DNA of 64,000 nt, from positions 1 to 64,000 of the forward strand of contig JAFSFD010000014.1 in NCBI GenBank assembly GCA_017435365.1, in the 5' to 3' direction. How positions within the stretch are numbered: the first letter of the stretch is position 1; the number at the start of each line of letters is the position of its first letter. Of the stretch, positions 48,995-63,953 are shown piece by piece. This DNA is from Akkermansia sp. GTDB taxonomy: Bacteria > Verrucomicrobiota > Verrucomicrobiia > Verrucomicrobiales > Akkermansiaceae. The position numbers and the translations under genes are program-made. A model generated the notes under the pieces. The model was not told the DNA's origin. It did not search any database and saw only the letters and a program-made list of their open reading frames with translations.

Positions 48995-49074
48995 ACACGC
49001 AGTTTCTCATATCCCCCGCCCCATTGTCAAGAATGATGCGCGACACACCAGAATGAGGCTGTTACTTTTCCTGT

Positions 49075-49169
49075 CCGTGAGCCGAAGGCTCACGGATATC
49101 GTCCTGCCGCAGGCAGGATATCGTCCACGCGCAGCGTGGATATCGTCTTGCCGCAGGCAAGATATCGTT
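49075..49169. repeat. array of four hairpins with GATATCG linkers
   Basis: Four small perfect hairpins lie about 22 bp apart: CCGTGAGCC-gaa-GGCTCACGG, CCTGCC-gca-GGCAGG, CCACGC-gca-GCGTGG and CTTGCC-gca-GGCAAG. Each is followed by GATATCGT. Arm sequences vary but remain self-complementary, while the linker and trinucleotide loop are kept. A sister array in reverse orientation is at 63780. Confidence 0.85.
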
Positions 49170-49245
49170 CTTTCCGCTCCACATTTTTTCCTGCAATCAA
49201 CCACCCGTTGGGAAAAATCTCTCCCACCCTGAAATAATCAGCGCT

Positions 49246-49363
49246 CTTATTTTAATCAGCGGTCCGAAATTAAAATAACGCAGCCCCTTATTTTAACTTC
49301 CCCGCCACAAATCGGGAGTAAATCGACCTCAATTCCCGAAATTCGGGAATCCTATACTCCCGA
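49246..49363. repeat. nested inverted repeats
   Basis: TTATTTTAAT/ATTAAAATAA (49246-49255 with 49268-49277); an outer pair TCGGGAGTA (49312-49320) with TACTCCCGA (49355-49363), enclosing an inner ATTCCCGAA-A-TTCGGGAAT (49332-49350). Confidence 0.8.
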
Positions 49364-49685
49364 ATTTTGGAGTTTATTTATCGCATTGTAATAATTGAAC
49401 GAAAAATCATGGGCAAAAAGAGGGGATGCGAATTTGTTAGATGGGCAAGAAGAGAGGGAGGCAGTTTGTGGGGTAGGCGGGGCGGTAGGTCGGGAGCGGC
49501 GAAGTGAAGCGCCGGGCGGGGATACCCCCCCGGAGCGGGGACGGCGGCGGGTCGCAAAGCTCGCCGCAGGGGGGAGCCGTTGATGAGCCCTGGGTGGGCG
49601 TAGATTCATCGAAGCCCCCTCGGCTCTTTGCCACGGTCGCGGCTGCCCGGCGGGCTTGCCACGCCGGAGCGGCTAAACGCCGCGG

Positions 49686-49770
49686 TGGCGGGAGCTTCAC
49701 ACATCCCCGAAGGCCTCGGCGAAGGCTTGCCGAAGACGGGAAAATCCCACTTTCAACATTCAACATCATC
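49686..49770 (+). repeat. 85-bp direct repeat, copy 1
   Basis: Shares ACACATCCCCGAAGGCCTCG, the following GCGAAGGCTTGCCGAAGACG and a CAACAT-rich end with copy 2 at 51471. The two copies are in the same orientation and bracket the two-gene cassette 49936-51255. Confidence 0.8.
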
Positions 49771-49935
49771 CACCCCCTTCGTGGCGGAACGGTTTGCGGG
49801 GGGCCTGCGGGCCTGGGGGCTGTTAGTCGAATGACGGCCAATATAACTCGCTTACTGGTGACTTTTATGTGAGAATACACTCCGAAGGCAGATTTTATCG
49901 TTTGCTTAAATTATCAACAACTAACCCACAAAGAA

Positions 49936-51304: not shown

Positions 51305-51470
51305 GCAAAAATTAAGCGGGAGGAACTGCGTTCGATTGGGGACAGCGTAGATTGATGCTGCGCGTGCGGCTGGAAGGTCATGGGCTCTCTTCCTCAGCCG
51401 CCATGCGGGGGGCTGATTAGGGTGGTTCTTCGTTTGTGGGCGAGACTGACTTTCTGCTTCGCCGCTCAGG

Positions 51471-51552
51471 CGGCGGGAATTTTACACATCCCCGAAGGCC
51501 TCGGCGAAGGCTTGCCGAAGACGGGAAAATTCAACTTCCAACATCCAAAATC
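51471..51552 (+). repeat. 85-bp direct repeat, copy 2
   Basis: Second copy of the element at 49686, ending on the stop codon of the next gene at 51551. The copies differ at scattered positions, so the duplication is not very recent. Confidence 0.8.
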
Positions 51553-63688: not shown

Positions 63689-63779
63689 ATAAGGCGAGGG
63701 AAGGGGGGGGATGGAACGAAATCACCCGCCGGGGGCGCCGGGTGACCCGTATTCGCCCGTTAGGCTTTGCCGGGCTGGC

Positions 63780-63850
63780 GATATCCGGTTCTGCGAACCG
63801 GACGATATTTTGCCTGTCGGCAGGACGATATCCGCGCGCTGGGCACGCGG
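63780..63850. repeat. second GATATC-linked hairpin array (inverted)
   Basis: GATATC, then CCGGTTC-tgc-GAACCGG, ACGATATT, an imperfect TTGCC/GGCAG hairpin, ACGATATC, and an imperfect CCGCG/CGCGG hairpin. Linkers and TGC-type loops are the reverse complement of those at 49075, so it is the same family in the other orientation, partly decayed. Confidence 0.75.
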
Positions 63851-63953
63851 ACGGGGCGAGACAGGGTGAGAACACTCCTGCGGAATGGTTCCGCCGGCGC
63901 TCTGTGAGCTATGGCGTGACGAGGCGGAAAACGGGGGATGCCCCCTGAATGAA

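What the first reader, a model, noticed from the sequence alone, without database searches (positions are those of the whole stretch)
49075..49169. Array of compensating hairpins joined by GATATCG
Arms differ from unit to unit but each remains self-complementary, while the linker GATATCGTC and the trinucleotide loop stay constant, so the structure seems to be kept rather than the sequence. A sister array lies at 63780 in reverse. It resembles neither CRISPR nor REP elements that I know. It could be a protein-binding array, a recombination hot spot or an RNA with serial hairpins.
Basis: seen in the sequence. Interest (0 to 1): 0.65.

Follow-up and report, generated by a model that had tools for sequence, protein, structure and literature searches.

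The report
Hairpin-array ends of S23 gene elements
The row of hairpins is one end of a family of small, probably mobile DNA elements in gut Akkermansia bacteria, which sit right behind the stop codons of ordinary genes and in their complete form carry a gene (S23) until now known mainly from inserts in ribosomal RNA, so an old puzzle about those inserts becomes testable.

Summary
Window 49075-49168 has four hairpins joined by ATATCGT; a partly decayed sister lies at 63770-63851 on the other strand. The window comes from an Akkermansia genome with 74 such linker pairs against 0 for the reversed pattern. Across relatives, 168 of 171 distinct linker-to-linker stretches fold end to end (96.5% Watson-Crick pairs; 62.6% if arms are reshuffled), and mismatches favour G.T over A.C on the array strand.

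The arrays are ends of a dispersed element: two inverted four-hairpin arrays around a short centre (~250 bp) or, in six fully mapped long copies, around an intact S23 (PF05635) gene. Half of 105 arrays start within 12 nt of a same-strand stop codon (random intergenic: 4.7%). Ordinary terminator hairpins here start 26-33 nt downstream.

Flanking inverted arrays of a short motif are general for S23 genes (Akkermansia 56/74, control genes 4/150), as hairpin arrays or plain heptamers. Motif and S23 tree agree, and two genomes changed the linker at unlinked sites.

My reading: a mobile element related to, but not a member of, 23S rRNA intervening sequences, whose linker S23 or a partner recognises. 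Association and structure are shown; mobility is inferred; recognition and mechanism are untested. Both window copies are solo and not at a stop codon.

The parts
49073..49095 (+). GT plus hairpin 1 (CCGTGAGCC-gaa-GGCTCACGG)
   Evidence: orthologue in G043 has the same stem with loop TCC
49096..49102 (+). linker ATATCGT
49103..49117 (+). hairpin 2 (CCTGCC-gca-GGCAGG), replaced by CGCGGC-ata-GCCGCG in the G043 orthologue
49118..49124 (+). linker ATATCGT
49125..49139 (+). hairpin 3 (CCACGC-gca-GCGTGG)
49140..49146 (+). linker ATATCGT
49147..49161 (+). hairpin 4 (CTTGCC-gca-GGCAAG)
49162..49168 (+). last linker ATATCGT
49169..49217 (+). probable remnant of the element's inner part (fifth stem, ending GTTGGGAAAAA; compare TTTCCTATG...CATYGGGAAA in complete copies)
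   Evidence: inferred by comparison
63770..63851 (-). sister array, partly decayed: hp1 about 63832-63850, hp2 about 63809-63824 (two outer pairs lost), hp3 63785-63801, then remnants

Best explanation
The array is one end of a family of small, probably mobile elements of Akkermansia. A complete element has two inverted ends. Each end is a row of four short GC-rich hairpins separated by single-stranded copies of the linker ATATCGT, followed by an AT-richer fifth stem. Long copies (about 650-750 bp) enclose one gene, S23 (PF05635/TIGR02436, the four-helix-bundle protein of 23S rRNA intervening sequences); short copies (about 250 bp) and solo arrays are derivatives without it. The elements sit directly behind stop codons on the sense strand, so they should be transcribed as the 3' end of the host gene's mRNA. 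Proposed working: the repeated linker is the recognition site, the hairpins only hold the linkers single-stranded and evenly spaced, so arms may change freely while pairing and linker may not; an S23 multimer (relatives form rings of five) or a partner binds the linkers at both ends and helps copy or insert the element at RNA 3' ends. Shown: structure, inverted ends, S23 linkage, place at stop codons, a sign that the sense strand is the folding one, co-inheritance of linker and S23, genome-wide concerted linker change. Inferred: mobility. Untested: that S23 binds the linker, and the insertion mechanism.
For: Dispersed multi-copy arrays, 74 linker pairs against 0 for the reversed pattern, patchy in the genus. 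Inverted pairs with a shared centre. Six mapped long copies in five genomes with an intact S23 ORF between near-identical inverted arrays (PF05635 E = 9.8e-20). Arrays start within 12 nt of a same-strand stop in 54 of 105 cases, 35 at exactly +2 or +3; random intergenic positions 4.7%. Terminator hairpins of 476 genes without arrays peak at 26-33 nt instead. Pairing 96.5% against 62.6% +/- 1.4% for reshuffled arms; single mismatches G.T/T.G 11, A.C 1, tandem G.A 6. Short motif at least twice upstream and at least twice inverted downstream: S23 genes 56/74, control genes 4/150; at least three times 32/74 against 0/150. S23 tree against motif: 18 changes, shuffled mean 39.8, 0 of 200 as low; the ATWTCGT group is one clade. 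In G035 and G042 the linker is ATTTCGT (pair counts 35 and 30) instead of ATATCGT (2 and 1), also at sites orthologous to ATATCGT arrays elsewhere. The S23 model matches 2RLD, 2GSC and, more weakly, Avd 4DWL of the DGR ribonucleoprotein.
Against: No insertion event was caught: no target duplication, and no empty site that aligns through both flanks. The G019/G036 version of the DJ-1 site (20-bp hairpin between the two stops) may be the target or a deletion scar. Both arrays in the window are solo, not next to S23 and not at a stop codon. The 11:1 mismatch count is small, its sequences are related, and cytosine deamination during transcription could bias it. Co-inheritance of S23 and motif follows from linkage alone. 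Array counts contain orthologues and tandem copies. S23 has no known catalytic activity.
Confidence: 0.7

Rival explanations
1. Host-owned 3' UTR element: serial hairpins act as transcription terminator or as a block against 3' exonucleases, copied between genes by recombination; S23 is a passenger.
For: Arrays lie on the sense strand at gene ends, often between convergent genes, and structure seems kept on that strand.
Against: Ordinary hairpins in these genomes start 26-33 nt after the stop; arrays start at +2/+3, where a terminating ribosome would open the first hairpin. No clear U-tract. Only a minority of Akkermansia genomes have arrays while the same genes elsewhere do without. Does not explain the S23 linkage or the concerted linker change.
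Confidence: 0.15
2. REP/BIME-like elements moved by a RAYT or IS200-type Y1 transposase.
For: Dispersed, palindromic, at gene ends; a Y1 gene lies near one array group on contig C77.
Against: Y1_Tnp occurs in 50 of 76 genomes and does not follow the arrays: many genomes with it have none, while G031, rich in arrays, has one weak hit. REP stems are conserved in sequence and carry GTAG/GGAG (established knowledge); here arms are free and no such foot exists.
Confidence: 0.06
3. Arms match because template switching in replication repairs inverted repeats into perfect ones, without selection for structure.
For: Whole hairpins are exchanged, and short perfect palindromes are typical products of such events.
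Against: G.T far outnumber A.C mismatches and tandem G.A mismatches persist on one strand; loops are strongly biased to GNA; linkers stay fixed while arms change.
Confidence: 0.07

Closest known systems
23S rRNA intervening sequences (IVS) with S23p, e.g. Coxiella burnetii (PMC4990558)
   Same: Small selfish element, S23 gene inside, complementary ends that can form a long stem (whole copy L282 folds with z = -14), patchy distribution, repeats near the S23 start; a role of the ORF in mobility was proposed there
   Different: None of 16 S23 loci lies in rRNA; these sit behind stop codons of protein genes, ends are arrays of hairpins with a fixed linker, many copies lack the gene
REP/BIME/REPIN elements
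   Same: Dispersed palindromes at gene ends, inverted pairs
   Different: Arms not conserved, no GTAG/GGAG foot, no link to a Y1 transposase, S23 gene in long copies
Intergenic heptamer repeats: GGGAATC/GGGGAYT in Xanthomonas and Nostoc (PMC4692102), TAACTGA in Beggiatoaceae, cyanobacteria and Bacteroidetes (PMC4679880)
   Same: Near or over stop codons; in the Xanthomonas/Nostoc case a preference for four units and some inverted pairs; S23 genes on Nostoc and Anabaena plasmids are flanked by inverted heptamer arrays
   Different: No hairpins between units; the words S23, four helix and 23S rRNA do not occur in either paper
Avd of diversity-generating retroelements
   Same: Same four-helix fold as S23 (TM about 0.8 to 4DWL and 8UB7); homology noted in PMC10053308
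   Different: No reverse transcriptase or template/variable repeats were seen in the mapped elements
Double-hairpin elements of fungal mitochondria (from memory, a lead only)
   Same: Mobile hairpins whose arms vary while pairing is kept
   Different: Mitochondrial, no S23, no fixed linker array

Membership tests
23S rRNA intervening sequence (IVS) | inserted in a 23S or 16S rRNA gene | tested here: not met
   no rRNA match in 16 S23 loci including L202; neighbours are protein genes
23S rRNA intervening sequence (IVS) | S23 ORF inside (some members) | tested here: met
   PF05635 E = 9.8e-20, TIGR02436, six long copies
23S rRNA intervening sequence (IVS) | complementary ends, cut out by RNase III | tested here: inconclusive
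   complementary ends predicted; RNase III cleavage not testable here
REP/BIME | conserved stem with GTAG/GGAG foot | tested here: not met
   arms vary freely, linker ATATCGT instead
REP/BIME | dependence on a RAYT (Y1) transposase | tested here: not met
   presence of PF01797 does not follow the arrays; by presence only, no experiment
CRISPR array | identical direct repeats with unique spacers | tested here: not met
   the variable parts are self-complementary hairpins, not spacers
Rfam structured RNA | match to a curated family | tested here: not met
   only two tRNAs in the window
Classical TIR transposon or MITE | inverted ends | tested here: met
Classical TIR transposon or MITE | transposase and target duplication | tested here: inconclusive
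   only S23 encoded in the long copies; no duplication could be delimited
Prophage or virus | occurrence in viral contigs | tested here: not met
   none of 53 IMG/VR hits holds a hairpin array

The most novel reading that the evidence does not exclude
S23 genes outside rRNA belong to a widespread class of mobile elements, bounded by inverted arrays of a short motif (plain heptamers in most lineages, motif plus hairpin in one Akkermansia branch), that insert at the ends of messenger RNAs in an RNA-guided or translation-linked way. Solo arrays of this class would explain the puzzling intergenic heptamer repeats of Xanthomonas, Nostoc and Beggiatoaceae, and rRNA IVSs would be its members in ribosomal RNA.
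Probability: 0.4. Interest if true: 0.92.

Novelty: new variant of a known kind. Interest (0 to 1): 0.8.

Why it matters
IVS elements and the S23 protein have been known for decades without a function or a way of moving. Here S23 is tied to defined, repeated, structured ends present in dozens of copies per genome, with natural linker variants (ATATCGT, ATTTCGT, AATATCGTT) that make recognition directly testable. It also offers one explanation for intergenic heptamer repeats described separately in other phyla, and shows a case where evolution keeps a fold and a linker but not the arms.

Tried and rejected
CRISPR, REP/RAYT, phage origin and Rfam families. Integron attC cassettes were considered and dropped: no integrase was looked for, but the four-hairpin layout and fixed linker do not fit attC boxes as I know them. 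Ordinary terminators: wrong distance from the stop codon. Hits of the linker pattern in other phyla: chance, except a different hairpin-free 22-bp repeat in one Bacteroidaceae genome. A clean empty site was sought at QueC and DJ-1: at QueC alignable sequence ends where the array begins; at DJ-1 the short form is ambiguous. A script for S23 flanks failed once on ORF choice and was redone with an HMM. In the literature library, searches for S23 or four-helix-bundle proteins as mobile elements or with tandem repeats found nothing beyond the IVS and DGR papers; subscription journals and preprints are mostly not held.

Full report
Observation. The array is as described. Window 49075-49168 holds four hairpins, each followed by ATATCGT, and folds far better than shuffled sequence as RNA or DNA (z about -6). 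The sister at 63770-63851 on the minus strand is real but partly decayed: in one hairpin two outer pairs are lost and one linker reads AATATCG. Rfam knows neither.

How widespread. The window is contig C11 of an Akkermansia-like genome (G000, 2.5 Mb). The linker pair GATATCGTC-N5-24-GATATCGT occurs 37+37 times there and never as the reversed control; seven of 76 genomes of the genus, G000 included, have many copies, most have none, and two more have many with linker ATTTCGT. Named carriers among public genomes are Akkermansia assemblies, several of them from ruminant gut; hits elsewhere are chance, apart from a hairpin-free 22-bp repeat in one Bacteroidaceae genome. No viral contig holds an array.

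Structure against sequence. Taking every stretch between two linkers without asking for a hairpin, 168 of 171 distinct stretches fold end to end; 96.5% of pairs are Watson-Crick, against 62.6 +/- 1.4% (maximum 67.6% of 200 trials) when arms of equal length are re-dealt. Single mismatches on the array strand are G.T/T.G 11 times and A.C once, and tandem G.A mismatches recur; on the other strand these would be A.C and T.C. This points to the array strand as the one that folds, though numbers are small and a transcription-linked mutation bias could contribute. GNA triloops dominate (75 of 127). The window array has an orthologue in G043, beside an RNase Z gene 99% identical in protein: flanks align, hp3, hp4 and the linkers are identical, but hp2 is a different, fully paired hairpin and the hp1 loop differs. 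Across orthologous arrays of ten genomes, changes are mostly whole-hairpin exchange or length change. So pairing is kept by exchange of modules more than by paired point mutations.

Anatomy of the element. Arrays come in convergent pairs. Two ~250-bp copies on contig C7 share the same centre and sit beside different genes. Long copies have near-identical arrays at both ends, a fifth stem TTTCCTATG...CATYGGGAAA and an intact 111-113 aa ORF in between; six were mapped in five genomes. The ORF is S23, PF05635 (E = 9.8e-20) and TIGR02436. Its predicted fold (pLDDT 96) matches S23 proteins 2RLD and 2GSC and, more weakly, Avd of diversity-generating retroelements. At the DJ-1 locus seven genomes share the S23 element, with the gene in either orientation; two others have only a 20-bp hairpin between the two stop codons, either target or scar.

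Place. Of 105 arrays with at least three hairpins, 54 start within 12 nt of a same-strand stop codon, 35 of them at exactly +2 or +3; random intergenic positions give 4.7%. At QueC the array supplies the stop codon itself, and the same gene in most of 30 genomes compared has no array. In 476 genes without arrays, hairpins instead peak 26-33 nt after the stop. The set contains orthologues and tandem copies, so the count is not of independent events. The window's own two arrays are exceptions: one lies 80 bp in front of RNase Z in antisense, the other has no gene close by.

S23 in general. S23 genes occur in 55 of 76 Akkermansia genomes and 182 of 241 sampled genomes of the phylum. A 7-mer present at least twice upstream and at least twice inverted downstream is found at 56 of 74 Akkermansia S23 loci, 9 of 28 in the phylum set, and 4 of 150 control genes; at least three times, 32 of 74 against 0 of 150. 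A separate test by exact inverted matches of 12 or more gives 16 of 29 against 1 of 117. The motif differs between lineages: ATATCGT, ATTTCGT, AATATCGTT, TTTTCAY, TTCTTCAY, CTTTCACG with hairpins between; ATGTTGA, AGTGGAG, GTTAATAG and others as plain repeats. Motif groups, which I assigned by eye from the top motifs, follow the S23 tree (18 changes, shuffled mean 39.8, none of 200 as low), and the hairpin-bearing families lie together on one branch. Linkage alone would give this. More telling, G035 and G042 use ATTTCGT almost throughout, also at sites where other genomes have ATATCGT behind the same gene: unlinked copies changed together, as expected if a shared factor reads the linker or if the sites are rewritten from a resident source. 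Two S23 genes on Nostoc and Anabaena plasmids also have inverted heptamer arrays.

Comparison. The nearest known thing is the rRNA IVS with S23p (PMC4990558), but the defining rRNA location is not met, so I do not file it there. REP/RAYT fails on the stem and on the transposase. Heptamer repeats with similar placement were described without an S23 link in Xanthomonas and Nostoc (PMC4692102) and Beggiatoaceae (PMC4679880). I found no description of this layout in the library searched, which lacks most subscription journals.

What is shown and what is not. Shown: structure, inverted ends, S23 linkage, place, co-inheritance, concerted linker change. Inferred: mobility, from copy number, patchiness and shared centres. 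Untested: binding of the linker by S23 and any insertion mechanism.

Noticed in passing
L031, L050, L056 (Bacteroidaceae RGIG4776): Direct repeats of period 22 with core GAGGATATCGTC and no hairpins, on many contigs of one genome; same linker word, different kind of array.
   Followed up: partly
window 49230-49400: Behind the array lie AT-rich repeats (TTATTTTAA...) and palindromes (CCCGAAATTCGGG), also conserved in the G043 orthologue.
   Followed up: no
window 49490-49880 and 51380-51500: A dispersed repeat whose translation contains HIPEGLGEGLPKTGK occurs twice in the window.
   Followed up: no
L062 6866-8000: Tandem 283-bp repeats of a complete inverted array pair, at least four copies in a row.
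   Followed up: no
hp1 of many arrays, e.g. L202 9356-9449: The first hairpin often carries a tandem G.A/A.G mismatch (CCGAGC-gca-GCGAGG) that persists although other hairpins are perfect.
   Followed up: partly
L211 17666-17718 and L212 11740-11792: Another dispersed two-hairpin element (CCCTCATGC.. / ACATGCC..) outside the usual four-hairpin layout.
   Followed up: no
L447 (Anabaena sp. 90 plasmid pANA02): An S23 gene with heptamer arrays sits between cas6 and cas4 of a type I-D CRISPR operon.
   Followed up: partly
L215 12307-13167: A 286-aa Y1 transposase (RAYT-like) lies 0.3 kb from an array with a different first hairpin.
   Followed up: partly
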